Below are positions 10,533 to 62,150 of a DNA stretch of 64,000 bases, piece after piece (the first letter of the stretch is position 1; every line of letters begins with the position of its first letter). Under the pieces are notes generated by a model. That model searched no databases. It was not told the origin of the DNA and saw only the letters and a program-made list of their open reading frames with translations. Source of the stretch: Gracilaria domingensis (Eukaryota; Rhodophyta; Florideophyceae; Gracilariales; Gracilariaceae); contig VCMS01000049.1 of the NCBI GenBank assembly GCA_022539475.1, forward strand, positions 1 through 64,000. The letters run 5' to 3'. The position numbers and the translations under genes were made by a program.

Positions 10533-10588
10533 ATTTATACTCCCGATGTCGGTACTTCGCCGTCGCGCTCGCGCTCGCGCTCGAACCT

Positions 10589-11589: not shown

Positions 11590-11599
11590 TTCAACCTCT

Positions 11600-16100: not shown

Positions 16101-16807
16101 ACGTAAGATATCCAGATGATATCCAAAAGACATACGGATTTCAAATCTACGGGGTATCATTCGAGCATCTGTATACTTCTCTGGGTCTGTACAGCGCTTG
16201 AAACTTGTTATGGTCTCGTTGAATCGCTTTTGCGAGAATCGCGGGTCCCAAAGTAGCCCAATTAGCTCTTCTGCCTCACGATGACTAAGGTTGGAAGCTA
16301 CTGAAGCCAGCCAAACCGTGAGATAATCCATATGCAAATCACCGAGGGCCTCCTCAGAAGGCACTGGGCGGGAACTGCTTCCGTGTTCTCGCTCTAATGA
16401 CGCGGGACCCGGGGAAGGAGAAACACAATGCAAAGTGTCCGGAATGGGAGGGGCGCACGGAGTAGTGTCAACGATGTCCTCGGACACCGGAGGCTCGGGA
16501 AGGCCACAAGAGGCAGTGACCGTTTCGGAAGATGCGGGCGCGGGCGCGGAAAGCTTGATACGCTTGCTTCTCCGAATGGGCCGCCTATTGTCGTCTTCCA
16601 GCGCTGCTTTCGACGAAACGGGCAATGGTTGACATGCTGTTGAAGAGATAAGACTCCTCGGCGAGTAACGAAGGGGCACCCACGCTTCTTATGTGTACAG
16701 TAGTAGACCATGGGAAGAAGAAATGAACGAGAAACGACGACAAAGACTGCAAGAGAAGGTCGTCTGAAGGGAGAAGGAGGTCGAGCGACAGTCAATATCG
16801 ACGTCAT
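13097..16807 (-). pseudogene. Plavaka/CACTA-like transposase
   Basis: Read leftward. The N-terminus (about 16715-16620) carries a C2HC-type zinc finger (CTHKKRGC ... HVNHC), then a frameshift and a low-complexity Ser/Pro region to about 16150. Sense resumes near 15740. From there to 13097 one frame is open, except for a single TAA at 14525-14527. Typical segments are SLFSFEPLHNLHLDISKL (about 14740), KDGLRGMLEAKNYKALDMVFP (about 14470-14400) and HPLDHLVDDIRRLGS.KYYDAG..EHAH near 14150. These match the pattern of Plavaka and related CACTA transposases. I did not pin down the DDE residues. A family C repeat (about 15765-16150) splits the gene. The protein would cut and join element ends in the nucleus. 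Confidence 0.75.
15765..16150. repeat. Family C-like repeat inside the transposase gene
   Basis: A stretch built from many GATATCC-like motifs (GATATCCGCC, GATATCCGAG, GATATCCATC, GATGTCC and others) in both orientations. It resembles the family C copies at 41640 and 57779 in motif content. It separates the zinc-finger part from the main body of the transposase. Exact ends were not found. It could be a separate family of similar composition. Confidence 0.5.
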
Positions 16808-17043
16808 GCTCAGAACGGAGAATATATTTTGAGTTTAAATCACGTGCTTTCGTTCAAAAAGGAACGTAGGTACACGTCGACCTCAACACAAGGGTGTACT
16901 TCTCGTATTATCTACCACTGGTTATAAACCTGTGGTTTCGCAACGTTGTACGCTGTACACCTGTCCAATCTCGCACAGAAAAATAAATCTCTTCCCTCCG
17001 CCGCCGTTGCCGCGCCTCCGGCGTCCGACCTACCGTTACCGTC
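16808..17043. other. Probable terminal region of the Plavaka-like element
   Basis: Non-coding. GGTACACG, GTGTAC and TGTACACC-type motifs recur at about 16870-16970, as in the subterminal repeats of CACTA-type elements. I could not locate a terminal inverted repeat or target duplication. Confidence 0.35.
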
Positions 17044-17118
17044 GTGACCCGTGCAATCCACCTCCTCGCGTTCTACTCCGACCGAGTAGAAAGCGAGGAT
17101 GTGGATGGCACGGATCAC
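17044..17118. repeat. 75-bp near-perfect palindrome
   Basis: Starts GTGACCCGTGCAATCCAC and ends GTGGATGGCACGGATCAC, with its centre near 17081 in a short unpaired core. The arms pair over more than 30 bases with about four mismatches. Both strands therefore encode similar short peptides, which explains the paired ORFs here. It would form a long hairpin in single-stranded DNA or RNA. Confidence 0.88.
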
Positions 17119-17389
17119 GAACGGCGCTTCGTCGTACCTTTCTCCGACCTCGCACTTGCTACGAAGTACAGGGCGGGGAAGAGAATGAGGTACGCTTCAT
17201 GTCCGCCTAAATGGACGCCTTCATAAAGCGGACATCATCCGTATCTCACGGATGTATTCCGTGCAGTCTTTTCGTACGTGCTTCCATATCCTTCTACGTA
17301 TCTTTGTTCTACACTAACCAATCCTCACCACGTCTCTTCGCGCTCTGCGACATGTAAACGGCAGGAAATAAGCTGTGGGTTACTTTGGC

Positions 17390-18262
17390 GAGTTACTAGG
17401 TCCCTCGAATTTTCTAGCGCGACGTTTCTGTTTTGCTTTATCAATGGTACGTTCCATCGCATTTCAAATGTATCCAACGGAGCATTGACTAACTTATGGA
17501 TATTTTCTGCTTACATATACAGGTAAATGACTTTTGATGCGGACGTTGCTCACGATTTGCAGGTACAGGATGTTAGGGGGAACTGCGGTATGTTTGCTGC
17601 ATGGGCATTTTTGGTGTCGTTGCTTGTGAGTTCTCGCTTCAAGACCATTCGCGTTTTACGATGATGGTGGGCTGGTAATCTAACCGATCCCTTTCCTTCT
17701 TCTTCTTCCTTTTGCGAGTTACTAGGTCCCTCGAATTTTCTAGCCCAACGTTTCTGTTTTGCTTTATCAATTGTACGTTCCATCGCATTTCAAATGTATC
17801 CAACGGAGCATTGACTACCTTATGGATACTTTCTGCTTGCGTATACAGGTAAACGACCAATTTCATTTTGTCTCTCAAGATCGATGTCTGACTGTTCGGG
17901 ATAGGCGATTCTGGTGCTTGGTTGTGACATAGGCTGCTCTTTTGTTTATCGCATCTTGCGGTATGTTTGCTGCATGGGCATTCTTGGTGTCCTTGCTTGT
18001 GAGTTCTCGCTTCGACACCTTTCGCGCTATACGATGATGGTCGGCTGGTAATCTAACCGATCCCTTTCCTGCTTCTTCTTCCTTTTGCGAGTTACTAGGT
18101 CCCTCGACTTCTCTAGCGCAACGTTTCTGTTTTGTTTTATCAATGGTACGTTCCATCGCATTTCAAATGTATCCAACGGATCATTGACTAACTTATGGAT
18201 ACTTTCTGCTTGCGTATACAGGTAAATGACTTTTGATGCGGACGTAGGTCACGAGTTGCAGG
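17390..18262. repeat. Three-copy tandem repeat with 326- and 373-bp periods
   Basis: GAGTTACTAGGTCCCTCG starts at 17390, 17716 and 18089, each time followed by about 170 bp of close similarity. The spacer with GGTATGTTTGCTGCATGGGC is present twice (about 17589 and 17961). No convincing ORF; the minus-strand ORFs in the copies are repeats of one another. Confidence 0.88.
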
Positions 18263-18267
18263 TGCAG

Positions 18268-18319
18268 GTTCCTCAAGTAGGGAACCATGCATCTGGGCAT
18301 GGTTCCCTACATGAGGAAC
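18268..18319. repeat. Hairpin 1 of three
   Basis: Inverted repeat with 23-base arms (GTTCCTCAAGTAGGGAACC... and its complement), one mismatch and a 6-base loop. Confidence 0.9.
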
Positions 18320-18320
18320 G

Positions 18321-18353
18321 GAGAGGATGAGGCGCTTCGCGCCTCATCCTCTC
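18321..18353. repeat. Hairpin 2 of three
   Basis: Perfect 15-bp stem (GAGAGGATGAGGCGC and its complement) around a TTC loop. Confidence 0.93.
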
Positions 18354-18387
18354 GGAGTGCGTATTTGTTCTACCGATACCGCACTTT

Positions 18388-18433
18388 GGTGCAGGTGCCC
18401 TCTGCGGCATCTGCCGCAGATTGCGCCTACACC
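18388..18433. repeat. Hairpin 3 of three
   Basis: Perfect inner 8-bp stem (TCTGCGGC/GCCGCAGA at 18401-18420, loop ATCT), extended by 13-base outer arms with four mismatches. Confidence 0.82.
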
Positions 18434-18550
18434 CGCTTCATCATGGGGAAATGGTACATGTAATATAGCGAAGTAGTGGTTAGCAAAAGCGGTCGATAGA
18501 AGAATAGATACGAATAAAACGGTGTGATTTCATAATGGGCATCATCTGTA

Positions 18551-18867
18551 CTAGCACCAGTATTCCATGCGTTGCAGGGTATCATTCCGAACAAGGTATC
18601 GTGTAATGTGCACCTTAATGGAAACTGAACCTAGACTTCGCGAAATACCGTTCAGGTAGCCCTCGACTAAAGAACTAGCACGAGTGGAAAACCCACCAGT
18701 ATTTACTGCACAGCGATTCTGGACGACCCAAGCAATTATCTCCAAATTTTGAAATAATTGATCTCGATATTTTTTCAAAAAATTCACTGGACGACCTTTG
18801 CCACTTTCTGGACGACCCTCGCCAAAAACTAGCATCTGCAAGAGACAGACGAGCATGCCACTAGGTA
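18551..18867 (-). other. Open frame of unknown origin beside element E copy A
   Basis: The first codons of this minus frame (MKLLKAV) still match element E copy B (54359 leftward); after that the two copies no longer match. The remainder has two near-identical short stretches, CTGGACGACC.TTGCCACTTT-like, around 18790-18820. Probably foreign sequence joined at the deletion edge of copy A. No domain recognised. Confidence 0.35.
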
Positions 18868-18901
18868 AAACTGCTTTCAACAGTTTCAACCGCGGGTGCC
18901 C

Positions 18902-20120
18902 TCACTCGTAGAGTCCCTCTTCTGCTTTCTGCAGCACTGGCTGTAGAATTTCCGGGACTGTATCGACGAAAGAATCGGTGTCGTCACCCCGCTTCTCAAC
19001 ATTAGGAGCTATATCAGAGTCCATGTCGATGCTGATTGATATTTGATGAGCTTTGAGGAAGCTCCTGACCCTTTTTTCTCGGAGCTTACGCAGATGATTG
19101 ATGACGAATGTTTCGTCTTCGCGCACTTTGCTTACTTTCGCCTTCTTCTGAGACCTGGATTTGTTTTCGCTCTTCATCTTCTTTCGTAGACGGCTTCTTC
19201 TGTTGCTCTTTCTAAACCCCGCACCACCTGGCTCCACTGAGACCCCGTCGCTTCCCACTCCCTGAACGTCTTCCTCCGTATCCCTCGCCTTAAACCGTTT
19301 AGAACGCGACGCCCGAGTATTTGGTTTAGCGACTTGGGGCGCAGGTGTCGTTGTCTTTCTACCTCCCGCCAGAGTACACGGCCCCACAGTAGAAGTGAAA
19401 TATACCCCGACGGACTTTCTCAGCTTTTCATGAGCATAAAAAACCCTTTTCGATATCTTCCATTCCCAAAGCTTCTTTTCGCTGCAGTTCCCATGCGTGC
19501 TGCCTGCGTTACAAGATATTCACGAATTCTGAGTTTCTCAAACCTAGTGACTTCAACTTGCATCTCGTACATTTCCTTCAGAGAGGTTCTCTCTTTCCAA
19601 ATGCTTCAGCAATCGAGGACTTAGCCACCTTCAAGTCCATCTCCGCAAAGCCCGATAGATGCCTGATATGGTACTGGCCTATGGTTTCGCATCCACTTAA
19701 TGCACCCGCTATAGTGGTACTCGTCATGCTGTTCAAGGCTTTCTTCTCCTCCTCAACCATCACCGTTATAAAGGGTAGAGTGCAATGAACCTCATTGGCG
19801 ACTTTCATAAGTCGGACGTGCTTAAGTCCATCGTTCAAAGCATTACCGAGGCTCAGAATCTTCCTCGTGTTCATCTTTTGTCCATTCTTTCTTCTCCATA
19901 AAAAAAAATTAAGTCCCCAACAAAGTTTCCTTATTTTCGGATCCTCCCGGATTCTGTGCTTCCTCACTACTCTTCTTGCTCCTTCTTTTGTCTTTTTGGC
20001 ACTTCGAAGATGCGGCGCCATGATGTTCCGAGTTTTCCACGGCTTTTGGGACCGTCTCATCTGCCCGTTTCTAATCCTCCTCGCTCCACTATATAGCGTG
20101 CTTGAATTTAGCTTCTTCAA
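18902..20120 (-). pseudogene. Left-arm gene of element E copy A: ParB-like C-terminal part and basic linker
   Basis: Two pieces. Piece one (20120-19578) joins an N-terminal HLRSAKKTKE-type start directly to the end of the ParB-like module (ILSLGNALNDGLKHV..., then GQYHIRHLSGFAEM). The domain core present in copy B is missing, which marks an internal deletion of about 1.1 kb. Piece two (19387-18902) is a Lys/Arg-rich, probably nuclear segment ending with the conserved ETFVINHLRKL and FLKAHQIS motifs. A further deletion separates the pieces, and frames differ. Nothing here is expected to be active. Confidence 0.65.
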
Positions 20121-20409
20121 GCCACTGTAAAGGTTGAATGAAGAACAATTGCGTAATCATGTAATGCTCTGATCACGGAAGCAAAAGGCGCACCCGCTCA
20201 GTTTTAAAATGGGATACGCTTCTCTATCGGTCGGACTGTCGCACCTGTTCGTATCAAAGTTTGTAGTGTAGATTTCGGAAATGCTCGCGTGAACATTTGC
20301 GTCACTTTCAAATAGTCCAAAAGGCTGGTAGAGATGGTTTGGAAGGCTTAGATGCATAGCCGACACCATTATCAACCATCACGGTTCCTTTCTGGTATCC
20401 CCCTTGGCG

Positions 20410-20547
20410 TGGTCAGATGCCACGTGTTCGGACCCCGGGCTGGATCGCGATCAACCGAGTTCATAGCCTAGATCATGGCCATAGCCTCGGCTTTGAACTC
20501 CGCTGAGCGCGATTCAGAGCGCGGTTTGAACACGTCGCATCTGACCA
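20410..20547. repeat. Central palindrome of element E copy A, 138 bp
   Basis: The outer 11 bases pair exactly (TGGTCAGATGC and its complement), and similarity between the arms continues imperfectly to a centre near 20478. The outer arms match those of the 56-bp palindrome in copy B. It lies between the divergent left and right arms. Confidence 0.82.
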
Positions 20548-21003
20548 CCCCAGGATGGTAACTAGAGGTGATTCTATACAAGTCTACTTACTACAGCCGC
20601 TCTCGCAAAGCTTTTCAAACCCTGTTTACGACTACCAACAGCTTAAATACGATTTTAGGATAACGGTTCGTCACCACCGTTTTCTACGCTTTCTAGAGTT
20701 CCCTCAACGAGTTTCACCTGCCACCGCCTATTCCGCTTTCGCGAGTTCTTGCGAGAGTTACATTGCGTCTGTCAGAAATGTGCCCCCCGTGAGCAGTGCG
20801 ATGTCGTCTACTACATCTTCCAGGCATCTACGGAGTCTAGCACAGGTGAGAAGAATGTTATGGTGACGCGGTTCCTACGTTTGTTCAGCCTACTTCTCGA
20901 GCGGAGAGACCCGTTTACGGCGTCTAGAGGAGACATTGATTCCCCTCCTGGGGTTGGGATCACGGCTGTCGTTGAGTACGCTGTTCCAAACCTTACCAGT
21001 CTG

Positions 21004-21249
21004 CCCAGCGAAAAATCGTGCAATTGAATTGAATCAGATAATCGACTGATTTTCAATCGTGCGCGGTATTTTCTTCAGTAAACCATGACCAAAGTCATTA
21101 TGTTCTCATTGGCTCAAAATGCAATAAAGACATGACGAATTAATTTTCTTTCAAAAAAGTAAGCTAACGAAGATGCCTTGAACTCTAAAAATGGTTTCTT
21201 CGCATGCTGAGAAACAATTGAAATTCAGTGACAGAAAGTTTTACCTGGG
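21004..21249 (-). mobile_element. Family A short element, copy 1
   Basis: Begins CCCAGCGAAAA and ends TTTTACCTGGG. The flanks CTG and ATT align to the uninterrupted sequence of copy B at 58250, so the insertion point is certain even though the duplicate has diverged. Confidence 0.85.
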
Positions 21250-21282
21250 ATTGATTGTGCACGGCATTGCCTCACCGACGTA

Positions 21283-21540
21283 CCCAGGTAGAATTTTCCG
21301 TCATTGAATATTCATTTACTTTTCTATATCTCTAAGCAAATTTTTATAGATGTTCCAGGTATTTTCAATGGATGAATAGTTTTAAGAAAATTGCTTTCAG
21401 TAGAATCTCAGTAGATTTTGATGCAAAGAGGACAATGAGGACATAATGACGCACGACTTTTCTTAATGAAAATTTACCGAACAAGAAATGAAAATCCTAT
21501 GATTTTCGAATTAAGTTTGATTGCACGAGTTTTCACCATG
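21283..21540 (+). mobile_element. Family A short element, copy 2
   Basis: Begins CCCAGGTAGAATTTTCCG; the end is altered to CATGG. Flanked by GTA on both sides (21280-21282 and 21541-21543), a 3-bp target duplication. It lies 33 bp from copy 1, in opposite orientation. Confidence 0.85.
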
Positions 21541-23262
21541 GTAACGAAGAGTAAGTACACGAACTGTGCGCCGCAGGGGCTCGTGAAGATAGAAACGATG
21601 TTAGGTTCAGAAATCGGGTCTACAAGTATGTCCGTACCATTGATATGGATGACTGGAGTCAGGATCGGCGGCTGAGGGATATTTTCAATTGCAGTTTGGA
21701 TAAGAATGTGGATGGTCAGAATTCCTTTATGCACCCCGTGTTCTGGAATGAAGTATTGAAAGAGAATGGTCCCGGATCCAAACAGACGAAGAAAACTACC
21801 TTCCGGATTGAACCTGCTACTCGTTTTCAGCAGTTACTCTTTCTATCCCTAATGAAGCGTATCACTATGGAGAGGCGCCTCCTGACTCCTAAGAGGTCGA
21901 AGACTGCAACTGTTTCTCGGAGACAGGTGTCGTTTGTCGATGGTTTCGTCATGTGAAACCAGACGCACGTAAGGCGGGTTATGCTCTCCAAACGATATTT
22001 CTAGGATAGGATTCTTTTGATTCCAGGTCCTGGATTTCGTAACGCAGAACAAATGCTGCTCCCGTTTCTTCGCATGGAGAGAGCGACGTTTTCTTTCGGC
22101 GCAATTGAGTCCCGTTCTTCCGGATACATTCCAGCATCGGTGTTCAGAACATTAAGGATCAAATGAAGCTAACCACCGAAGTCAACGATACTGTGCCTCG
22201 GCTTCACAACCTTTCGGATGACATCGATACTAAACTAAAGAACTCGTCAGGAGAGTTCCGGTCTGATTTGGTGGTTTTAAACGGATTTCTGTACAAAATG
22301 GCCCCTACTGCCAAGTGGGAACTGCTGGAAGGCCTTCGAAGGAAACCTTGGACACGGTTCCCATCTCGTCTTGATGCGTTCTCCGATGCGTATTTGGCTA
22401 CTCTTCGTATCGCTAATGTCCAGCTGAACTTTAGACCTTCCTAGTCGGTGTCCCAGGCCACTCCGTCACGACGTCAGGAAGGAAACAACACGGTCAAGGT
22501 GAAGATTGAGGATACAGATACGGCACAGAGACCCATTTCCTCTAGGCCTAGGTCTAAGACGGTGAGTAAAACATCCGGTAAAGCACCCAGCTCAGACCTG
22601 GGTCCAGTGGATGTCATTGACATAGACGATACGGATGATGACGACGATCGTCTACTGTTCCTGATGGTATTCTTGCACTTCTCGACTCTGGTGATGCAAG
22701 AAAGACGAAGGCTCTTCGTGTGGTCAGAAACAACATGAAGCAACAGTTCTCTATGCATTGTGCAGGTTATGAAGAGTTCGTGGAGGCTCATGGTACATGG
22801 TACACTGTTCCCTTCCGATACTTCCCCTCGAGGGCAATGTTAAAATCGTACTTACGGACTGGCTTACGGTATCCATGAAAAGTGAGCATGATGAGCTTCT
22901 CGACGAAGATATGGTTAATACTGCAGAAATGATGTACTGAATGCTTCGCCCAAGCTAGTTTTATATTTTTCTGTATTATCGAACAGTTCGCAGACTGGTA
23001 GAAAATTCTAGGTGAGCACAAATCGTAGAATGCAGTGAGGGGGCAAAGTGCATCGTTCTTAGTAGAATCCACACCGATTAAATTCATTCGCTCTCGTACT
23101 AACACCTTGAAGAACCCCGGAAGGAACACGGACTACAAGAATTTCGACTACGTTCCCACCCAGTACCCCGGGCATAAGTTCATTACCGATCAGGTTCCGC
23201 ATCCGGAGGCTGGTGAACGACCCCGTTGCAGCAGAAGGGAAGAGTTGCTTACAATGGTCTAA

Positions 23263-29800: not shown

Positions 29801-29873
29801 GCAAGAAGCTGCACCAGATTCTCAAATCACCTCAACTATACCGATCCCGAGATCGAGGACACCAGCGAGAACA

Positions 29874-38890: not shown

Positions 38891-39029
38891 GCGCGCCGTC
38901 TCTATCTCATGGGCGCGAAGCCTTCCAAACCGGCTCCCACGCGGTCTGTGAGTCTCGTTTGTCAGAAGGTTTAAAACACAGCGTTGCGCACGACGATTAA
39001 GCCGCGGCGCTACAAAGCGGGCACATAAT

Positions 39030-41640: not shown

Positions 41641-42059
41641 GCGCAATGGATTTTCATCGAATGAAAAATTGTGACATCTATGCGGCATCAGTTGGATATC
41701 TTACGCACATCCAAGATATCGGAGTGATATGCCGTGGTACCCCGTTGGAAGCGCCTAATTGATGCCCTTTACATGTCCTTTGGATGTAGAGAAACTATAC
41801 GGACGCTATTCACGTGATGCACGAAGATATGTCCCATGGATGTCCGGAAATCCGCTGTGCATCATTCGGACATCACGAAATCCAATGGACATCTCTTCTT
41901 ATATCATATGCATATCAGGCCGCTATCATTTAGATATAATTCATGCATCATCTAAGCATCATTTACGTATATCATATGGACATCTTAGAGAGATCAAATG
42001 GACATCTTCAGGTTTCATAATTCTAATATGGGTTGTCTGAGGGATATCATCCGGACATC
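41640..42059 (+). repeat. Family C repeat, copy 2
   Basis: About 420 bp. Shares long stretches, in opposite orientation, with 57779-58188 (for example GATGCCCTTTACATGTCCTT and GTGGTACCCCGTTGGA). Ends at GGACATC. It lies between the protease and integrase parts of C2. Left edge approximate; no clear target duplication. Confidence 0.75.
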
Positions 42060-50700: not shown

Positions 50701-52206
50701 GCGGGAACGTATCGGTAGGAAAAAGGGAAAGGAAAGGGAAAGAGGGGAAACCGAAAAGAACGGGAATGGAGGGGAACGGAAACAGAAGGGAACGGAAACG
50801 GAAGGGATCCGAAACGGGAGAAGACGAAACTCTATTCGTGCGTAGGCGCTCCTTGAACATACCACGGCGCCAAACTTCTGTCCTGTATGTACGCGCTTTA
50901 ACCACCACTGCCTAGCACCCGTTCGTATCCCTGTGAAGCATTGTTTCTCAAAAATAGTTTCATAAATCTTATAGCAATTCCCCAAATTTCAACCCTTTCC
51001 ACCTCTTCATACTATCTATTCATCATCATCCATGTACCGTATTCTTTAATTATATCACTGTCTCGTCTCTTAGTATAGTATAAAGGCAACCAATCTAATC
51101 AATCGTTTATGAAAACCATATTTTCTACATGTTAGTAGCCTCTACTTTTAAAGAGGCGTAATAGTAGAGTGGTTTTGCTATGTATTGTAAGTCAAAAACA
51201 GTCTGCGTTGTAATGAATAAGTGTATCGCATCTCTACAACCATCTAAAGCCCCCTTTATTCTCGTTTGCTACTAATTCGAAAACGAAACTGTTCCGCAAT
51301 GATCTTTCGCAATACACACCAAGTACGGGAAGTACAGCTAAACAATCGATTGCGTTCTGTTCGTATCCAGCTCGATGCTTTCCCACATGCAACATAAATC
51401 ACTTTCAACAACTGCCTTCAGTTACAGTACGACCTCAACGCTGAAGAAGCTCACATTCGAGGGTTGCAAACTCTCATCACTCTCGCACTGCAGAATGAGC
51501 TCAATGAGCTCTATGAATACTGCATGACACATCCCGTTACGAAAGTATTCTGCAGCCCCTACCCTTTACTAACGCTATTCCAACTCTCCCAGAGCTTTCG
51601 AATTATATAAATCAGTCAAAATTCTACTCTCAGAATCATCTCATGCTTCCGCCACCTTCAATGGTGTTAGCTTCATTGTTAACGTTAGCCATAGGCGCGC
51701 TTTAAGGTATCATCAAGCTAGTCTTCGCCCAAGCGCTTTTATTCAAGCGCTCCTCTCGCCATGCTCAGGTAGGGTCCACCATTCTATATAGCATTCTGGA
51801 AACCATGTTACACATTATTCTCTTCGATCTTCCCTCCTCCCTACATGCCGCAAGATACGATACCATAACTCTCGGGCCGATGATCCCTTCGCAAATGACG
51901 AGCATCTCCTCCATATTGGGCAATAAATACTTGGGTGTAGCTATCGGTTGCCTTTTCCCTCTCAATCTATCTATCTTCGTCAACTATCAACTTCGTCCAT
52001 CTCCCCTAAATCTCATAGAATCTGTCAAAAGAGTCTCTACAGCGTTTTTCCCAGGTGGATTTCTGTTCCGCCTATTCACTATCGTCGTGAACGCACTGTC
52101 TATCTTCCACTCCACAGGCAACACCTTTAAAAACATTGCACCGCTCTCGTGCCGCGTAGGCACTCGATAGGAAAGGCCCTGTCTCTACATCCGTAGTGTT
52201 TTACAC
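50701..52206. other. No gene recognised
   Basis: A GGGAACGGAAACGG-type purine repeat lies at 50720-50820. Otherwise there are short ORFs without resemblance to any family, including the 121-codon plus frame at 51805-52170. Confidence 0.4.
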
Positions 52207-52569
52207 TCCAGGTGGACATTTGGGTGGTGTATGTACGCTGCCTGTCGGATATCGTGGTTCATTTGTCTACGATGTGCCTGGTTTGGCACCGTCTCGTATG
52301 TAAGTCGTATCTATGTCAAATGTGTGTCGTATAAGTGTCTAATGCATGGCTGATGATTGCAGGTGTAACGAAATAAAAGCGTAATTTTTTGAGATTTGCA
52401 CTGTGCCCGTTGTGTGCGAATAACACTCATAAACCAGCCATACGTACGTTTTAGATGCGTCAAAGATACGGCATAAATCAGATTTTGCCCCAAAACAGGC
52501 ACCGGGTAGACAAATGAACCCCTTCAGCAGGCGCAGACAGTACATAGACCGCGCAAATGGTCACCAGGG
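52207..52569 (+). mobile_element. Family B short element, copy 3
   Basis: 363 bp. Begins TCCAGGTGGACATTTGGGTGG and ends GGTCACCAGGG. Flanked by CAC on both sides (52204-52206 and 52570-52572). Same orientation as copy 1. Confidence 0.92.
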
Positions 52570-53064
52570 CACTCTTTAAACATGGCTTTTCTTTTCCTTG
52601 ACGTACTGCTCTCCCTCACAATATTTTTGAACAGAGCGGTCGCACTATTCTTCGCCCATACTCTTTCTGATTCGCTAGAACCGTCAGCCGTATGTACAAA
52701 GGCATCCCCCGTTTTCTTATAAGCACCCTATTCGTTGCCCTTCTTGTATGTGCGGGTACCGTAAAGAACCACGGGTCAACCTGAAAGGATACTTGTGTGC
52801 AGTCGGAGAGCATCCTGAACTCTAGAATCGGCGTCTATAGGAGAAATAATTTAGAAAATAGCTACGATAGTTAGTAGTAGTACATAGGTAAAGAACAAAC
52901 ATTTAACTCCTTCCTAATGAAATCTCTTTGTGGAAACATATGGACATATGTGTAGCACTTGTGTCAAAGGTTTTTACGCAAAACAACAATTAATATATTC
53001 AACAACAACAAAAAATGCTGGAGATATCTCCTGATGTCCATTCGTAAACTACAACGTCATAAGT
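52570..53064. other. No gene seen
   Basis: Spacer between the family B element and element E copy B. Contains only short ORFs and AT-rich runs. Confidence 0.4.
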
Positions 53065-54359
53065 TCATAAAATCTTCGTTCGTTCAGTTCTCCTCCCCAT
53101 CCTCTGTCCTTTCTCCTCCATTCCCTGCACTTCATAGTTCTCGTCTTCTTCGTCGCTGTCTCCTTCCTCATCCATCAAGTCATCCTTTTCGTCCTCTGCT
53201 CCCCATCCTTCTCTAATTCCATGTCTACCGCAAGACCACCTGTTTTGTCCTCCATTCCTATGAGGTCGTCTTATTCCCCAAAAGTGGCTCAAAAATGATG
53301 ATTCAGATGAACTGCATCCGGCAAACTGTACTTCTCTGATACCATACACCTATGGTAGCGAAACAATTGGCTTTCCGGAAATCTTCGATTTTTAGCCCCC
53401 GCACCGGCATGAAATACATCCCATCCCCCCTCCCATTAAACATACACGTAGGTGCGATAAAGAACTTTCTCACCATTCCTCGTGCCAACCCTTCAAATGT
53501 CTTTGCTGTTACAGCAATGTGACTGTGAGAGCCTTCACATATCCAAAGTGAGAACGACACAGTTCCGGAGACCATCACAAAGTACCCCGGGTTCTTCTCC
53601 TCCAGCTTTTCTTCGTTTGTCCAGGTCTCGAAGTCGGTATGTACTTGCTGTCGCTGGCAAGCTACTCCGGTACATAAGATTCTTCCTTCGGTCTTCGGTA
53701 CATACATTCTCTCATTCGGTGGCTTGTTGTCTTCTATCCCCAACGCCGCGCATATCTGACCTAGCCGAGCATCTAACAACGCCCTCTTCTTCACAAGCAC
53801 ATGCGTCTCCGGTGTAGTCTCCAGCTCGTCCACTGTCCCTCTTCTCGTCGTCATGTACCTTCCATCGCCCGCGTTAATTATAGAAATCCATGTAGTTTGA
53901 TTGTCTGGTACCCTGAGGTCTGGGGTTTCTTCGAAACTTCTTTTGAAGAAGTACAATAACTCAACGATTACATGCCCCTCGATGAGCTTTCTGGGACTTT
54001 CAGCCTTCCTCACGAGGTCGTGCCACAAGCAAAGCCTTCCAGAATACAGAACCTGTCTTCCAAAGCTCAGTCTTCTTGTTCACAAAATACATATACGCGA
54101 CAGCATCGTTCCTCAGTGCCTCTGCCCATAGGGACGCATCATCAACCTCACCGTCTCCTACCGCCTCGTTGAGAAGTTTCTGAACCTGATACGCAGCAGG
54201 CCAAAACACAGCGTCACGTACTCCTTTAAATTCCTTCGGCTTGAGCAAATGGCCTCGGTGCTCCTTCCGGAGATGTATGGCATCCATCCACGAATATACT
54301 GACTTAATCACGTCCACTCCAGCAGGCGACTTGGTAGGAACTGCTTTCAACAATTTCAA
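53065..54359 (-). pseudogene. Element E left arm: 2OG-Fe(II) oxygenase-like module
   Basis: The start (54359-54000, MKLLKAV...) shifts frame near 54030 into a 241-codon frame ending at 53303. That frame has CQRQQVHTDF, with an H-x-D pair as in the iron site of double-stranded beta-helix oxygenases. Then come PGYFVMVSGT, LWICEGSHSH and a FIAPTCMFNGRGDGMYF segment. In related algal proteins, as I recall them, this last segment has the form I-P-P-x-S/D-x-F-x-G-x-GD-x-x-H-x-G; here the His is not present. A shift near 53340 opens a strongly acidic tail (DDLMDEEGDSDEEDE) to 53065. If active it would hydroxylate a substrate using 2-oxoglutarate; loss of the distal His makes activity doubtful. A cupin of another type is an alternative. 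Confidence 0.5.
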
Positions 54360-54375
54360 CCACGAAACATCCCTC

Positions 54376-55262
54376 TTACGGTCCTTCTACTGCTTTCTTT
54401 AGCGCCGAGGATAGAATTTCCGGGACTGTGTCGTCGAAAGGCTCGGTCTCGTCTCCTCGCGTCTCAACATTCGGTCCTGAATCAGAGTTCGTGTCGCTGC
54501 TGAAGGAGATTTGATGAGCTTTGAGGAAGCTTCTAACCCCTTTCCCTCCCAGTTTACGCAGATGATTGATGACGAATGTTTCATTTTGAGACAATTCGGT
54601 TACTTTTACCTTCTTCTGAGCCCAGAGGGTGTTATCGCTCATCATCTTCCTTCGTCGACGGCTTCTTCTGGTGCTCCTTTTCAACCCCGCAAGACTTGGC
54701 TCTACTATAACCACGTCGCTTCCCACTTCCTGAACGTCTTTTCCAGCATTCTTGGCCTTAAAAAGTTTAGAACGCCACGCCCGAGTATCGGGTCTAGTGA
54801 CTTGGGTCGTAAGCATGGTCTTCTTCCCCCTCCAGTCGTGACGGACGGCCCCACAGTCGATTTTAAATCCACGCCAACGGACTTAATCAGCTTTTCACGA
54901 GCATAAGCCACCCTTCTCGATATCTTCCGGCCCCAAAGCTTCTTTGTCGCTGCAGTCTCTATGGGTGCGGCCTGTGTCACAAGAAACTCACGAAGGCTAA
55001 GTTTCCCAAACCTAATGACTTCAATTTGCATCTCGTACAATTCCTTCAGAGAGAGTCTCTTTCTTTTCGATACTTCAAAGGCCAGCTCATTTAGGAACCG
55101 GCAGCATATAAATAAATACTTCCGTATGTCTCCAAAGCGACCCTTCATTTTGGACTCTCGCCTCCGCGCAAAATATGCTGCGAGGCCGCCCAGGGTGAAA
55201 TCGGTTATGTCCTCATCCATAGGAAAGAACTCATCACTGGAGATACACGTAATACGAATTTA
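54376..55262 (-). pseudogene. Element E left arm: basic linker region
   Basis: From 55262 the frame continues directly from the ParB-like part after a single TAA. It reads to 54705, then shifts to the 54816-54376 frame. It has an LSLKELYEMQIEVIRFGKL segment, then a Lys/Arg-rich stretch (STRRSRRRRKMM) that looks like a nuclear localisation signal, and ends with ETFVINHLRKL and FLKAHQIS, which are conserved in copy A. No enzymatic motif. It is probably the connection between the ParB-like and oxygenase-like modules of one protein. Confidence 0.6.
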
Positions 55263-56899
55263 ATTATACTCCCGACGCATATTTTCCACATGCTTCAGCA
55301 ATCGAGGACTCTTAGGACCGTTCAAGCTCATCTCCGCAAACCTCGATAGATGCCTGATATGATACTGGCCTATGATTCTGCAAACACTTAAGGTACCCGC
55401 TACAGCGGTGCTTGTCATGTTGTTCAACACTTTCTTCTCCTCTTCAGCCATCGCGGTTATGAAGGGTACAATAGAATGAACCTTGTGAGCGAATTTCATA
55501 AGTCACGCCTGCTTCAGTCCATCGTTCGAAGCATTACCCTGGCTCAAAGCTCCCTCATGTTCATCCTTTGTTCATCTTTTCCCCTCCACGAAGAAACCGT
55601 AAGTTCTTTTACACAGTTTCCTCATCTTCGCATCATCTTCACATAGTTCCTTGAGTGCCACAAGAGAATGGGACCCATCTATGAGGATATACGTAGCTTT
55701 CATGCGTTTTCTGCCCACCATCTCCTTCTCGGACTTATCCGTGAACAAAATAGCAAGACGCATCGTTCCAAGGGCTTAAAGAAACCCTTTTATTCGAATC
55801 TCAGCCTTCAGAGCTTCAATATGCTCTCGAACTGTCCCATTCACAGTTTCGTCCTGGACTTCGCTTAATTCGATGTCAACTTTCACCGACTCCCACTGAT
55901 AATGGTTCAAGATGAACCTGGGCGTTACCAGACTCATATCCACGTCATCAGAAGGTAATTCATCACCTTAGTCGAATAGTTCATTGACTTTTCTAGCCAA
56001 GCTCTCCTTTCCCCAGGAAACCTCATCATTATCCACTTCATCCACATCCACAACTTCCATCCTAGCTCCACTGCGACTCCTAGCCATTTCAATCGCTTCA
56101 GCAATGCAAGTTCTGGACGACCAAGACTGCACATTCATTGCTGGTTGCTTTCGTAATGCAGAGACCGCACTCTCTGGAGTTTTGATCAATTTTAAAGTTC
56201 CTATCTTTGTACCACCCTGGTTTTGCTTACATAGAGTTTTAGGGACAGACCCACGCGTTGGAGGCGGTAGCTTCTTCCCCCCTTTGTTCTTCTGTTGCTT
56301 GCCTGGTGTTTTTGTCTGGGCTATCTGAGGTGCAATCGCTTCCCACTCGGTGCGCGCGGAGGGTTCGGTGTTTCTGCCACATGCACTAGTGACCCTCCTG
56401 TCGTGGACGCCGCATTGGTATCCCCCGACTTCTTACTGGACACCTGTGGCGTGGTGTTCTGAACGGTCTCACCCAAAGCCATAAAGTTCAAGTCCCAAGC
56501 ATAGAAACCCATCTTGTTTAAGTCCGCAACGGTCTTCAAAATTGAGTCTTCATCCGTACACTTAAATGGATACGGGTGCGGTGTAAGGAGCTCCTTGGAT
56601 ACATCGGGTCGCCATATACCTACTATATCCCATCTAGGCTTCTCTTCCATTGTGTGACCATGCATTTGTCTTTGGTAATCTTTGCCTCCGCCGGCAGACT
56701 GGATGGCCATCACGTCAGCTGTGCTAATTGAGATCTTCTCCCCTCTATTCTCCGCGATAGGAGGCGTCATTTTGTCTCCCGGTGCGGGCTTTGCACTGCC
56801 CAGGTTGAAGTTCCTACTCGTCTTCGGATTCTCTGCTTCTTCACTACTCTTCTTCTCTATTTCTTTCGTCTTCCTCGCACTTCGAAGATGCAGTGCCAT
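55263..56899 (-). pseudogene. Element E left arm: N-terminus and ParB-like module
   Basis: Starts MALHLRSARKTKE at 56899 and is open to 56321, with one shift near 56330. A single frame then runs to 55260 through four stops (including TAA at 55968-55970 and TGA before LMKF). Within it, VNGTVREHIEALKAEI (about 55850-55800) and YILIDGSHSLVALKELCED (about 55680-55625) have the form of a ParB/Srx domain, where the motif is typically VDGxHRxxAL; here S replaces the Arg. After this come KVHSIVPFITAM and GQYHIRHLSRFAEM. ParB-like proteins bind or nick DNA. Here the module may guide the element's other enzymes; that is inference. Confidence 0.6.
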
Positions 56900-57349
56900 G
56901 GGTTTCCGAGCTTTTTGCGGCTTTCGAAACCGCCTTATCTACCTTTTCCTCAATCCTCTTGGTTCCACTATATAGTGTGTTTGAATTTACCTTCGTCAGA
57001 AATCTGTAAAAGACGAATGCAGAACAAAGCGGTAGTCGTGTAATGCTGTGATCACGTCAGCAAACAACGCACCAGGTCGGTTTGAACATAATACACGCTT
57101 CCCTGTCGGTTGGAGTCTCGCACCCGTTCGTTTCGCAGATTTGTAGTGCAGCTCGCGGAACTGCTCGAGTGAACATTCGTGTCACTTTCAAAGAGTGTTA
57201 CAGGCGGTTAGAGACGGTTCAGAAGGCTTAGATGCATACCCAACAGCATGATCGACCCTCACGGTTTCACCCTGGTACTCGCCTGGGGTGGCCGGATGCG
57301 ACGTGTTCAGACCGCGGTCTGAACACGTCCCATCCGGCCACCAGCATGG
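56900..57349. promoter_or_regulatory. Divergent intergenic region of element E copy B
   Basis: Separates the left- and right-arm genes and aligns along most of its length with 20121-20554 of copy A (for example GAAGGCTTAGATGCATA in both). Conservation of a non-coding region between decayed copies, and its position, suggest a two-way promoter. TATATAG lies near 56970 on the left-gene side. Confidence 0.5.
57287..57342. repeat. Central palindrome of element E copy B, 56 bp
   Basis: GGTGGCCGGATGCGACGTG is the start; the second half is its exact complement except for one position. The centre is GACCGCGGTC at 57310-57319. The outer sequence matches the arms of the longer palindrome in copy A. Confidence 0.95.
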
Positions 57350-58923
57350 TCACTACTAGACGTGATTCTACACAAGTCTGCAAACTACACCCGCTCTCAC
57401 AAACCTGTTCACTCCCCCCTGCGTACGACTACCACCCGCTCAAATACGAATTTAGAATAACGTTTCATCACCACCGTCTACTACGCTTTCGAGAGCTCCT
57501 TCAGCGAGTTTCATCGCCACCGTCTATTCCGCTTTTGGGAGTTCTTGCGAGAGGTACATGGCGCCCGTTGGAAACAAAACCCCTCCGTGGTTTTAGCAGC
57601 AGAGCGAAGTCGACTACCCCATCTTCCGTTGAATCAACGGAGTTTAGCTCCGGTGAGAAGAATATTATGGCGAGGGGGTTCCTCCGTTTGTTCAGCCTAC
57701 TTCTAGTACTAAGAGACTCGTTTGTGGCGTCTCGAGGCGGCATTGATTCCCCTTCTCTGATTCCAAGAGAAGTGAATTGATGTCCAGAGATATTCCTCGG
57801 ATAACCTATATTAGAACTAAGAAATCTGAAGATGTCCATTTGATCTCCCTAAGGTGTCCAGATGATATACGTAAATGACGCTCAGATGATGCATGAAGTA
57901 TATCCAAATGATAACCACCTGATACGCATATGATGCACGAAGAGATGTCCATTGGATTTTGTGATGTCCGAATGATGCACCCTGGATTTCCGGACATCCA
58001 TTGGATATATCTTCGTGCATCATATGCATATCTTTGGAATAGTTTTTGTAGATCCAAAGGACATATAAAGGGCATCACTTAGGCGCATCCAACAGGGTAC
58101 CACTGCATATCATTTGGATATCCTTGATGCGCAGAAGAAATCCGACTGATATCCCATAGATGTTCCAAATCTTCATCCGATGGACATCCATCGCGAATCA
58201 CTTAAGCTCACAGAGATTGGATACACATCTCTGGTTGAGTACGGTGTCGCAAACCGTGCCAGTCTGGCTTTTGCTCGGGAATTTCACACGGATGTTACGA
58301 AGACCATGTACAAATACTATACGCCGCAGAAGCTGGTGAAGATATGTGCCGATGTTAGGTTCATAAGTCGGGTCTTCAAGTATGTCCGTATCATTGATGT
58401 GGATGACTGGAGTCAGGATCACCGGCTGAGGGATCTTTTCGAATGGAGTTTGGGTAAGAATGTGGATGGCAGCAATTCTTTTATTGAGCCTATGTTTTGG
58501 AATGACTTGCTCAAAGAGCACGGTCCCGGATCCAAGCATACCAAGAAAACTATCTTCTGGATTGAGCCTGCTACTCGTTTTCAGCAGTTGCTCTACCTCT
58601 CACTCGTGAAGCGTATCACTTTGGAAAGGCGACTCCCGGTTGCGAATAAGTCAAAGAGTGCAAATGGTTCTCCAAGAAAGGTTCCGTTTGTCGATGGTTT
58701 CTTAATCTCAAACCAAACGCACATAAGTTGGATGGTTTATGCTGTGCAAATAATATGTCTAGGATGGGATTCTTTTGATGCTAGTCTTAAATTTCGGAGG
58801 CAGAACAAATGCTGCTACGGTTTCTTGCCATGGAGAAGGCGAGGCTTTCTTTCGGCGCAATTGAATCCCGTGCTTCCGGTAACAAACCAGCATCGGTGTT
58901 CAAAACACTGGGGATCGAAGTGA
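57350..58923 (+). pseudogene. Element E right arm: N-terminal region
   Basis: Reads from about 57400 to 57778 (GEKNIMARGFLRLFSLLL), is interrupted by a family C repeat (57779-58188), and resumes at 58189 with SLVEYGVANRASLA, DDWSQDHRLRDLFEWSLG and IEPATRFQQLLYLSLVKRITLERRLP, open to 58923. No domain recognised. The region 58926-59060 continues the same gene in another frame (TEVNATVP, FLNGFLYK). It corresponds to 20555-22300 in copy A. Confidence 0.6.
57779..58188 (-). repeat. Family C repeat, copy 3
   Basis: About 410 bp beginning GATGTCC and ending GGACATC. Shares most of its length with 41640-42059 in the opposite orientation. It lies inside the right-arm gene; the copy A gene has no such insertion at this point. 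Confidence 0.82.
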
Positions 58924-59060
58924 AACCAGCCACAGAGGTCAACGCTACTGTGCCTTAGGTTCACACCCTTTCGGATGATATCAAAACTAAACTAATGAAT
59001 TTCTTAAAAGAGTTCCTGCCTGATTTGGAAACGGTTTTCTTAAACGGATTTCTGTACAAA

Positions 59061-59308
59061 CCCAGGCAAAACTCGTTAAGGGAAAACTAAAAGAGGTTTC
59101 AGTAGACTTGCAGACAATATGACTGCTGTAGTAAGGTAATATGACCAATGTCATTGAAGGATAAGTAAGTTTTTGTTTCACTGACATTTCCATGAGTGTG
59201 ATTTTTTGAAAAAATTAAATTCCTCGAAATTGTCCTTACATTTTATTGAAAGGCATCAATTTAATTTACCGCCTTACGATGGTTCAATGACACTGGGTTT
59301 TGCTAGGG
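59061..59308 (+). mobile_element. Short element with family A-like ends
   Basis: Begins CCCAGGCAAAAC and ends GTTTTGCTAGGG, the complement of CCCTAGCAAAAC. Left flank AAA, right flank AAG; copy A at 22297 has the empty site ACAAAATG. The interior differs from the other family A copies, so it may be a separate subfamily using the same transposase. Confidence 0.8.
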
Positions 59309-60890
59309 AAGATGTCCGCTACTATGAAGTTGGAACTGCTGGAAGGCTTTCGAAGGAAACTTCAGACACGGTTTCCATCTCGTTTCGAAGCGTTCTCCGA
59401 TCAGTATTTGGCTACTCTTCGCACCGCTATTGTCCAGCTGAACCTGAGACCTTCCCAGCAGGCATCTCGGGCTACTCTGTCACGAAGTAAGGAAGGAAGC
59501 AACACGGTCCCCATGAAGATTGAGGATACCATTACGGTACAGAGAACCATTTCTTCCAGGCCACGGGCTAGGGCGGTGGGGAAAACATACGGTAAAATAT
59601 CGGGAGTAAACTCGGCTGCACTGGATGCCATTGTCGTAGACGACACGGAAGACGAGGACGTTGGTCAGCACTCAGATTCTAATGTTCCTGATGGTATTCT
59701 TCCACCTCACGACTTTGGCGATGTAAGGACGACGAAGGCTTTCAGTGTCCTCAAAAAAAACATGGAGCCACACTTCTCTGTGCATAGCTTTGGTTATGAA
59801 GAGTTATTGAGTGCTCATGGTACACTGTTCTCTTCCGATAATTCCCTAGAGGTCAATGTTCAACTCGTACTCACGAACCCACCTCATGGTATCCGTGACA
59901 GTGAGCATGATGAGCATTTCGACGAAGACATGGTTAATAATGCAGACATGATTGCCTCAATGTTTCGCCGCGGTGGTCATTTTATATTGTTCTGTATCAT
60001 CGAACAGATCGCGGACTGGGAGGTTATTCTACGTGAGCACATATCGGAGAATGCAGTGGGGAGGCAAAGTGCTTCGTTCTTAGTCGACCCCAGACCGATT
60101 CAATTCATTCGCTCTCGTCCGAACTCCTTGAACAACCCCGGAAGGAACAAAACAATTTTGTTCTCTGCAACCGAGTATACCGTGCACGGACTCCGGAATG
60201 GAAACGCTTACGAAGAGCAGAAAGTGATGGTGAACTGCAAAAACTTCAACTACGTTCCCATGCAGTATCCCGCGCATTATTCCATTATCGATTAAGTTCC
60301 GCATCTGAAGGCTAGTGAAGGACTCCGTTGGAGGGTGAAGAAGCGTTCCAGAATCCACTGGGTTCAGGTTCGCCCCGAACAGAAACCGAGGGTACTGCTG
60401 AAGGAAACTTATTGCCAGGTTCTCCAATCTCGGGGACGTTGTGGTTCATCCCTATGGTGGAACTTTTCCGCTGCCTTGGAATGAATGAATATGGAAGAGC
60501 TCTGACACTTCATTGGATGTGAAAGGGATGAGCAGTGCTTCGCTCATGCTGAATACAATGCTGTAGTGATGGACACGAGGAAAATTTGGCGTAACGAGTT
60601 CAACGCAAGAATAACTGTCTGTAATGAGGTCGTTCAAGCCTCGTATTTAGTACAGACAAGGATCCCCGGAAGGGAGGCAGAGAACCTCGCGTATGTGCAC
60701 CGCATGGAAAGGATTCCCGCCATACCAATGTTTACCGTTTCATATCAATTCCTACATCGCAACCTTTTGCAGAGAAGCGAGTCTCATTGCGCAGCACAAA
60801 GAGAAACCTGTGCACGAGTGGGCTCTGAATCTTCAAGACCCATTGGAGACAATGTATGTACAGAGGTTGCTCGCCATCTAAGCAGCTGAT
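59300..60890 (+). pseudogene. Element E right arm: DNA N6A/N4C methyltransferase-like module
   Basis: Open from 59300 for 331 codons. Residues 193-197 are NPPHG (59876-59890), the position of the catalytic (D/N)PP(Y/F/W) motif, followed by MFRRGGHFILFC, the strand after it. After a TAA at 60293-60295 and a shift, 60432-60470 reads GDVVVHPYGGTF, matching the SAM-binding DPFxGxGT motif, and a neighbouring frame has FIGCERDEQCFAHAE (about 60511-60560). Motif IV before motif I is the order of beta-class enzymes (N6_N4_Mtase type). A KGFPPYQCLPFHI segment follows at about 60705. His in NPPH instead of an aromatic residue, and His for Asp in motif I, question activity. It would methylate DNA bases with S-adenosylmethionine. 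Confidence 0.72.
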
Positions 60891-61387
60891 TTATGTTTGT
60901 ACAGGAAGAAATCAAATGTCGAACACCCCATAAGTGGAGATGGAGTGTTGAGTAGTAGGTCGTTCTCGTAAGTAGAGGTTATTGCTTACTTCTATGGGAC
61001 ATTGAAATATCATGACAGAAGCCGACGCAATGCAACACAGATGAAATACGGAAGCGGAGTGCTCGGTGCCACCGTTTCTCGTTTCAGGAGGTATTGCATG
61101 GAAGTGAAGCTGAAAGGGCAGATTTAGAGCAGCTTCCTCACTATGATTTCGAAATCAATACTGCGATTGCCTTAGTAGTACCCGCTCCTTTCTGTATAGC
61201 GGGCTACATCAATGATGCTTCGTACCGGGATGGGGACGAAAAGAAGAATTTGGCCGAGATGGAGCCTTACCAAGGCCGGTTATCAAACATTAATTATTCG
61301 AGAGCCCTCCGAGCATCAAGCTACCACATTCGGTACACTCCCAAGCTATTGACTACTGTTGGTGATGGCCACGAGGGATACTCATAA
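60891..61387 (+). pseudogene. Element E right arm: SET-like module
   Basis: In the same frame as the preceding segment, NVEHPISGDGVLSSRSF and then, after one TAA, VIAYFYGTLKYHDRS resemble the start of a SET domain (GxGVFAxRxF ... GExIxxYxG). After a shift at about 61094, VPAPFCIAGYINDASYRDGD and NINYSRAL resemble the Asn-containing core (N-H/N-D) of SET. The post-SET cysteines were not seen. SET proteins usually methylate lysines, mainly on histones. The match is by motif only; no catalytic Tyr could be assigned. Confidence 0.55.
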
Positions 61388-62150
61388 ACACGACAAACTG
61401 TACCTAGATTATAGACCCAGCCATCCATGGGAGAGGTATTTGTAACTCTTCCATGCTTTATAGTTTGACGTAGTACAAAGTGTTGTAGTGAATGTATTGC
61501 ACTGGGATACTCCTTCCGATGGGTGCATAATAGTATTTGTAGTAGTTAGTGGGCAGAGGGGGCACCTCGGGTCCCACACGTGTAGGGTTGTGACATTTGT
61601 CGTGTCGCGCTCCGGGATCCCCCTTAAATGTAGATAGTTTATTATTTTCCACACGTGCCTACTGCCCGTGGGAGGTGCGTTTAAGCATCTCCCGCGGGGC
61701 AGAGCTCACCGTGGTAAACCTCAAGCACCCCCTCGCGGATTCTTCCATCGTCTAGTTTCCCAACAGGGTCGTTCTACCGTCACTAGCAGTGCTCCACGCC
61801 TATCGCGTGGCCCGTTGTTAGCGTCCATTGAAGGCTCCTTCGTCCGCGCTTAGGTGCTGCGCAATATGTTCCTTTATCAGGGCATAATACGTTGTCACGG
61901 CCTGTGGCTGTAGTACAACTGGTCTCCCGACCTAGAATAATTCTCTCGCGTCTTTTCTGGTTAATTCGACCCTAACGGGATTCGCGTTGTCGCTTTCAAA
62001 TCATTTCTTCCCTTTCGGGCTTTTGTGATCCGTCGCGGGTCATTTGGTTTCGCCGCTCCGTCGCTTTTTCCCTCTAGGGTTTTCTCGAATTTGCCCTCAT
62101 TCGGGTTCATTTTGTCGCAAGCCGGACGAAAATTCCCCTCCGCCTACCGG
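61388..62150 (+). other. Probable LTR and leader of the second Ty3/gypsy element
   Basis: Non-coding stretch between element E and the gag start at 62151, about the size of an LTR tail plus leader. TATAG occurs near 61460. I could not find a second LTR copy in the window, so the exact limits are unknown. Confidence 0.4.

What the first reader, a model, noticed from the sequence alone, without database searches (positions are those of the whole stretch)
53065..61387. Divergent two-arm element with ParB-like, oxygenase-like, DNA methyltransferase-like and SET-like modules
Two divergent gene arms combine, in one element, modules for DNA binding (ParB-like), oxidation (2OG-oxygenase-like), DNA methylation (N6A/N4C-type) and protein methylation (SET-like). 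The whole layout repeats in a shorter copy at 18868-23262, so it is a repeated unit and not chance proximity. I recall methyltransferase-SET and ParB-like proteins in repetitive algal DNA, but I cannot confirm that this paired organisation has been described. A selfish element able to write marks on its own or the host's DNA and chromatin would be a notable system.
Basis: partly seen in the sequence, partly recalled or inferred. Interest (0 to 1): 0.93.

Follow-up and report, generated by a model that had tools for sequence, protein, structure and literature searches.

The report
Jumping gene with DNA-marking gene pair
A broken copy of a large, repeated red-algal jumping gene carries two back-to-back genes that look able to bind, chemically mark and possibly unmark DNA and its packaging proteins, a new arrangement of a kind of cargo already reported in algal transposons.

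Summary
Window 53-61 kb is a decayed copy of a two-arm unit. Open copies elsewhere in the genome show what the arms encode. Minus arm: one protein of about 1300 aa with a ParB/sulfiredoxin-type domain (supported by a structure prediction) and an oxygenase-like part (motif only). Plus arm: one protein of about 1100 aa, a beta-class N6A/N4C DNA methyltransferase plus SET. The arms are divergent in 70 of 70 pairs found. Both look under purifying selection between families A and B (omega about 0.1, rough). In two of three main families the pair sits beside a second ORF and a Plavaka transposase; one exact element end was found, the other not. The host is a red alga, most likely Gracilaria domingensis or a close relative. 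ParB-methyltransferase proteins in algal transposons, SET genes in oomycete ones and TET/JBP oxygenases on fungal Plavaka are in print; a key red-algal paper could not be read. So: a new variant of a known kind. Self-binding, self-marking and escape from silencing are inferred, not shown.

The parts
51548..61493 (.). extent over which the decayed family-A copy matches other genomic copies (left limit is where the fetched loci end, not a proven element end)
   Evidence: blastn to fetched family-A loci among L016-L048, mostly 84-89% identity
51706..52167 (+). remnant of an ORF that looks hydrophobic by eye (membrane-protein-like), convergent with the minus arm (homologue open in L022:2-937)
   Evidence: L022 copy has no Pfam family
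53244..56977 (-). minus arm: remnant of the ParB-like/oxygenase-like protein gene, in several frames with stops
   Evidence: tblastn of P0001 pieces; stops counted
54837..56240 (-). region matching P0001 residues 276-744, which includes the ParB-type part (P0001 about 385-735)
   Evidence: model of the open homologue
53244..54019 (-). oxygenase-like C-terminal part; HTD motif kept, frame breaks near the distal motif
57366..61442 (+). plus arm: remnant of the methyltransferase-SET protein gene, in several frames with stops
   Evidence: tblastn of P0003 pieces; stops counted
59858..60550 (+). N6A/N4C methyltransferase domain, motif IV reads NPPH instead of DPPY (limits approximate)
   Evidence: domain limits from Pfam on P0003
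60936..61415 (+). SET-domain remnant (limits approximate)
   Evidence: domain limits from Pfam on P0003
57287..57342 (.). near-perfect 28-nt inverted repeat between the starts of the two arms (role unknown)
   Evidence: I4, 96% complementary
18852..23231 (.). second, shorter family-A copy (both arms, lacking the oxygenase end and the SET end)
11585..18851 (.). right part of a family-C element: ORF2 remnant, Plavaka transposase remnant, subterminal repeats and exact terminus
13100..16834 (-). Plavaka transposase remnant (three pieces, 90-97% identical to the 1100 aa frame in L055)
   Evidence: Pfam PF18759 on the L009 copy
11585..13097 (+). remnant of ORF2 (unknown function), convergent with the transposase
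18832..18851 (+). element terminus GCATCTGCAAGAGACAGACG
   Evidence: same end base in five other contigs, which with the window are four different junctions; 263 + 304 matches in the genome at up to 2 mismatches against 0 + 0 for the reversed-pattern control
52210..52590 (.). insert carrying 60-nt inverted-repeat arms (52256-52315 and 52461-52520, 73% complementary); related to 29871-30238
57754..58213 (.). insert with inner inverted repeats, 85% identical to 41624-42072 (inverted)

Best explanation
The window holds an old, dead copy (family A) of a large cut-and-paste DNA transposon lineage whose related families carry a Plavaka transposase and, as conserved cargo, a divergent gene pair. One gene makes a ParB-type protein with an oxygenase-like C-terminal part; the other makes a DNA methyltransferase fused to SET. 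Shown: the modules (except the oxygenase chemistry), the constant divergent layout, the linkage to ORF2 and the transposase in families B and C, one precise element end, high copy number, and purifying selection on both proteins. Inferred: from the shared promoter region both proteins are made together; the ParB-like domain loads on the element's own DNA and holds the oxygenase there; the methyltransferase-SET protein writes N6-methyladenine (or N4-methylcytosine) on DNA and methylates a lysine of a chromatin protein. The result would be a chromatin state that keeps the element expressible or times its transposition, against host silencing.
For: Modules: (closest PDB sequences DpnA and CcrM). 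Layout: 70 of 70 divergent in families A/B and 19 of 19 in family C. Linkage: in family C, ORF2 follows SET on the same strand in 33 of 33 pairs (of 54 ORF2 matches; median gap 232 bp) and the transposase is convergent with SET in 19 of 19 pairs (of 55 transposase matches); contig C591 holds oxygenase arm, SET, ORF2 and transposase in that order within 14 kb. Family B on C12 (one locus) has the same order with an open 1068 aa Plavaka transposase (PF18759 E 6.4e-24), 46% identical to that of family C. Precise end. Selection, families A against B: omega 0.10 (methyltransferase-SET, 1092 codons), 0.08 (ParB part, 185 codons), 0.08 (oxygenase part, 280 codons), with synonymous sites at or near saturation. 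Relatives: P0005 (minus arm) and P0008 (plus arm) each list 4 contigs with the same longest contig length, 20528; P0010 has a ParB-like N-terminus, methyltransferase and SET-like part in one chain.
Confidence: 0.6

Rival explanations
1. The cargo controls transposition, not host silencing: methylation of sites at the element's ends licenses or times the transposase after replication, as Dam methylation does for IS10 and Tn5 (recalled).
For: Pair and transposase are kept together in families B and C; subterminal repeats lie at the right end.
Against: Does not need SET or an oxygenase; no methylation data.
Confidence: 0.2
2. The pair is an anti-competitor or addiction device: it marks the element's DNA as self and the ParB-type domain nicks unmarked DNA, since ParB domains fused to adenine methylases can be nickases (PMC5512222, passage read).
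For: ParB-type domain beside a DNA methyltransferase; in P0010 both are in one chain.
Against: Model matches are strongest to ParB/Noc N-domains, several solved with bound CDP or CTP analogue; hundreds of element ends coexist in one genome, so strong DNA cutting is unlikely.
Confidence: 0.1
3. Hitch-hiking host genes: the pair was captured by chance and amplified, with no function for the element.
For: Family C also carries HAD-like hydrolase genes; many copies have broken motifs or frames.
Against: Families about 35% identical, and probably another organism, keep the same pair; omega 0.08-0.10 between families A and B.
Confidence: 0.08
4. Remnant of an integrated virus.
For: Large element with methyltransferase and SET genes.
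Against: Plavaka transposase at a fixed place; pattern-based scans of IMG/VR found no relative of either arm apart from one weak match to the methyltransferase domain alone.
Confidence: 0.02

Closest known systems
ParB-methyltransferase accessory protein of Sola1-1_Ec32 in Ectocarpus, with similar proteins stated for green and red algal transposons (PMC12477816, abstract and passages read)
   Same: Algal DNA transposon; ParB-like domain; N4C/N6A methyltransferase; accessory gene
   Different: There one 1104 aa protein on a Sola1 element. Here ParB and methyltransferase are on two divergent genes; SET is fused to the methyltransferase and an oxygenase-like part to ParB; the transposase is Plavaka
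TET/JBP-carrying DNA transposons of fungi, including Plavaka (PMC12730594; abstract, sections 3.2.2 and 4.2 and passages read)
   Same: Plavaka transposase; oxygenase cargo thought to act on DNA marks
   Different: Our oxygenase-like part matches no Pfam family. [quoted passage not shown] here a methyltransferase-SET sits beside it. Terminus differs
SET-carrying HarbingerS and MuDR elements of Phytophthora (named in a passage of PMC12730594)
   Same: SET gene as transposon cargo
   Different: Other transposase superfamilies; no DNA methyltransferase fusion is mentioned in the passage
Giant EnSpm elements with several accessory genes in red algae (Petroll et al. 2025, Bostrychia; cited in PMC12477816, itself not held)
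   Same: Probably the nearest relatives; ParB/methyltransferase cargo implied by the citing text
   Different: Cannot be compared: paper not readable here
Bacterial beta-class methyltransferases DpnA and CcrM
   Same: Best PDB sequence matches; motif IV before motif I
   Different: No SET, no long N-terminal domain (recalled)

Membership tests
Plavaka DNA transposon | Plavaka transposase (PF18759) | tested here: met
   Families C (E 2e-18) and B (6.4e-24). The window family-A copy has no transposase, so for it this is by relationship only
Plavaka DNA transposon | termini TGT..ACA or CATCA..TGATG as given for fungal PlavakaA/B (PMC12730594) | tested here: not met
   right terminus is ...GCATCTGCAAGAGACAGACG. 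The element is called Plavaka-type by its transposase only, not placed in either fungal lineage
Plavaka DNA transposon | 2-3 bp target-site duplication | tested here: inconclusive
   left terminus not found
ParB/sulfiredoxin superfamily | ParB N-domain fold | tested here: met
ParB/sulfiredoxin superfamily | G-x-H/R-R nucleotide motif (recalled) | tested here: met
   DGxHR invariant in 5 of 5 rows
ParB/sulfiredoxin superfamily | CTP binding and hydrolysis | not testable with these tools
   Needs biochemistry
2-oxoglutarate/Fe(II) oxygenase | HxD...H metal triad | tested here: met
   HTD and GDVxHAG invariant in the 7 rows of A4; exceptions elsewhere: K for the distal H in L051, RTD in P0012
2-oxoglutarate/Fe(II) oxygenase | double-stranded beta-helix fold | tested here: inconclusive
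   model mean pLDDT 38.9, no meaningful Foldseek match
TET/JBP dioxygenase | match to a curated Pfam model | tested here: not met
   0 families for all 7 members at E up to 10
beta-class N6A/N4C DNA methyltransferase | PF01555, motif IV (DPPY/F) before motif I | tested here: met
   met in open copies, not in the window copy (NPPH)
SET lysine methyltransferase | PF00856 over cut-off | tested here: met
   families A, B and C over 22.4 bits; P0010 just below at 21.6
SET lysine methyltransferase | NHxxxPN motif (recalled) | tested here: inconclusive
   8 rows of A2: ND in 7 and NH in 1 (L013); the later PN kept in 3 (P0002, P0003, L013). Activity uncertain
Algal ParB-methyltransferase transposon accessory protein | both domains in one protein on a DNA transposon | tested here: not met
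   split on two genes in families A-C; P0010 has both in one chain, its context unknown

The most novel reading that the evidence does not exclude
A DNA transposon lineage carries, from one divergent promoter, a complete self-directed chromatin circuit: a ParB-type clamp that recognises the element, a tethered oxygenase that removes a mark, and a fused DNA-and-protein methyltransferase that writes others. It would be an element-encoded reader, eraser and double writer, kept together through deep divergence of the element families.
Probability: 0.3. Interest if true: 0.85.

Novelty: new variant of a known kind. Interest (0 to 1): 0.6.

Why it matters
If the circuit works as inferred, a mobile element would carry its own DNA and chromatin marking system and could show how bacterial-type adenine methylation enters eukaryotic epigenetics. 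Family-C copies are young (transposase 95-98%, first HAD-like gene 94-100% identical among the copies scored), and long-read sequencing reads 6mA and 4mC directly, so the idea is testable on the genome itself.

Tried and rejected
Pfam on window pieces gave only sub-threshold hits, so open genomic copies were used. A second ParB-like motif (NGSHR) beyond the oxygenase arm turned out to be an out-of-frame reading across a membrane-protein-like ORF and was dropped. The left terminus was sought in L056-L058, L060 and L061: similarity between two copies ends at L060:539, inside a gene-like frame next to an epimerase fragment on C433, without a copy of the known terminus, so it stays open. The oxygenase fold was sought by a second structure job and by Pfam, PHROGs and PDB profiles, without result. 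Viral origin: no support. Prokaryotic relatives of the minus arm: none among 39 pattern matches. Papers: Petroll et al. 2025 and a 2016 adenine-methylation review are not held. Passages of PMC12695648, PMC12502185 and PMC12636532 gave nothing on this arrangement.

Limits of the counts: genome searches score only the best candidates (150 of 311; 147 of 512; 120 of 468; 55 of 1900; 54 of 975; 135 of 900; one search scored all 146), so counts are lower bounds. For one search, 137 of the 150 SET rows were used (the 8 strong host SET genes, 3 rows on C382, and C356 and C3 were left out). In the motif IV count L042 and L048 are the same place and count once; two pairs among the 20 loci carry identical motif sequences on different contigs.
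Full report
What is in the window. Coordinates 53-61 kb contain an old copy of a two-arm unit. Both arms are in several frames with stops, and the window pieces hit no Pfam family significantly. Similarity to other copies in the genome runs from 51548 to 61493, mostly 84-89% identical, with three inserts. The methyltransferase motif reads NPPH in place of DPPY, so this copy is dead. The shorter copy at 18852-23231 is a related fragment, 77-80% identical over seven blocks. It directly abuts the exact end of a different element at 18851.

Host. The genome is 77.9 Mb in 680 contigs. It has 14 phycobilisome-linker matches, four of them on contig C680, which looks like the plastid (the plastid reading is inference). 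P0011, named Gracilaria domingensis FGB62_128g110, matches the family-C oxygenase part at 496 of 532 positions, 24 of the misses being gaps. The host is therefore a red alga, most likely that species or one very near it.

What open copies encode. The minus arm is one frame of 1326 aa in C140 (P0001). The plus arm is one frame of 1118, 1121 or 1055 aa in C12, C157 and C171 (P0002-P0004). These frames run from stop to stop; starts and introns were not determined. The plus arm has N6_N4_Mtase and SET over their cut-offs. Motif IV precedes motif I, which is the beta class, and the closest PDB sequences are DpnA and CcrM. In the minus arm, residues 25-375 of the modelled part (P0001 360-1290) are predicted with pLDDT mostly 60-90, the rest poorly. 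They match ParB with CDP (Foldseek probability 1.00 and 0.99, but E 1.7e-3 and 4e-3 and target TM-score 0.38), pNOB8-like ParB-N, Noc, KorB and sulfiredoxin. The C-terminal part keeps HTD...H...GDVxHAG in all seven rows of A4, of which the distant ones are 44-51% identical to the first, but neither fold nor profile confirms an oxygenase. Exceptions to the motif exist (L051; P0012).

Organisation. In families A and B, 70 of the 99 merged methyltransferase matches have a ParB-end match within 12 kb, and all 70 are divergent; 51 of 51 methyltransferase-oxygenase pairs are divergent; 67 of 68 ParB-oxygenase pairs are on one strand. In family C, 19 of 19 SET-oxygenase pairs within 9 kb are divergent, out of 137 SET and 143 oxygenase places examined, both lists capped. 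These copies are related by descent, so they are not independent events. The stronger argument is that families about 35% identical keep the same pair. P0005 (minus arm) and P0008 (plus arm) each list 4 contigs with the same longest length of 20528, which suggests but does not prove linkage in another organism. P0010 joins a ParB-like N-terminus, methyltransferase and a SET-like part (just under the cut-off) in one protein; its ParB-like part aligns to the minus-arm profile with E 0.0028 but a low probability of 11%.

The element. In family C, downstream of SET lies ORF2 (832 aa, unknown) on the same strand, then a convergent Plavaka transposase. Of 54 ORF2 matches, 33 have a SET match within 3 kb, all on the same strand (median gap 232 bp). 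Of 55 transposase matches, 19 have a SET match within 6 kb and 11 an ORF2 match within 3 kb, all convergent. Family B on C12 repeats this order, with a 1068 aa transposase 46% identical to that of family C. A fragment related to the family-B ORF2 is also seen after SET in one family-A locus, L048 (42% over 136 aa). Family C additionally carries HAD-like hydrolase genes beyond the oxygenase arm: 135 copies of the first were scored, at 94-100% identity, and a second was seen in L056. Family A has a membrane-protein-like ORF there instead. An exact terminus, GCATCTGCAAGAGACAGACG, ends at the same base in the window and in five other contigs, four different junctions in all. It occurs 263 + 304 times at up to 2 mismatches, against none for the reversed-pattern control. 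The other terminus was not found.

Selection. Between families A and B, omega is 0.10 for the methyltransferase-SET protein and 0.08 each for the ParB and oxygenase parts, although synonymous sites are at or near saturation, so the values are rough. Within families omega is 0.3-0.8, as expected where many copies decay. Methyltransferase motif IV is DPPY or DPPF in 13 of 20 loci and changed in 7, the window included.

How it likely works. The layout implies co-expression from one divergent region. Inference: the ParB-like domain binds the element, the oxygenase-like part edits a mark there, and the methyltransferase-SET protein writes DNA and protein methylation. The outcome would be escape from silencing or timing of transposition. 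None of these steps is shown. The SET part has ND in place of the usual NH in 7 of 8 aligned rows (motif recalled), so even its activity is uncertain.

What is known. PMC12477816 (abstract and passages read) reports a 1104 aa ParB-like plus N4C/N6A methyltransferase protein on an Ectocarpus Sola1 element. [quoted passage not shown] the red-algal source (Petroll et al. 2025) is not held. PMC12730594 (abstract, sections 3.2.2 and 4.2, and passages) describes TET/JBP oxygenases on fungal transposons including Plavaka, and names SET genes on oomycete elements. The separate ingredients are therefore known. The divergent pair with ParB-oxygenase on one side and methyltransferase-SET on the other, on Plavaka, did not turn up in ten paper searches, but the most relevant paper was not among those held. 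Verdict: a real, well supported new variant of a known kind, interest 0.6.

Noticed in passing
window 3852-7085 +: Open Ty3-type retrotransposon pol frame of 1078 aa with reverse transcriptase, RNase H and integrase.
   Followed up: partly
window 36345-36803 +: Fragment of a hAT transposase C-terminus (PF05699, E 1.8e-8).
   Followed up: no
window 38513-39058 -: Start of an adenylate kinase (PF00406, E 6e-10) at the end of an open frame, possibly a host exon between repeats.
   Followed up: no
window 8598-10586 -: Open frame of 663 aa without Pfam match.
   Followed up: no
window 52210-52590 and 29871-30238; window 57754-58213 and 41624-42072: Two pairs of short related inserts, one with 60-nt inverted-repeat arms; they look like small non-autonomous elements.
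   Followed up: partly
L013:915-4424 + and L013:5478-7322 +: A fourth, divergent methyltransferase-SET family with EPPY in place of DPPY and a different 615 aa neighbour frame.
   Followed up: no
L049:9030-9899 +, L056:150-1217 -: Two HAD-like hydrolase genes (PF08282) as further cargo of family C; 135 copies of the first were scored at 94-100% identity. Possibly captured host genes.
   Followed up: partly
L061:2-1171 - and L061:1224-1541 +: On C433 the sequence shared with C60 ends inside a 390 aa frame next to a ribulose-phosphate 3-epimerase fragment, which may be the host locus from which cargo was captured.
   Followed up: partly
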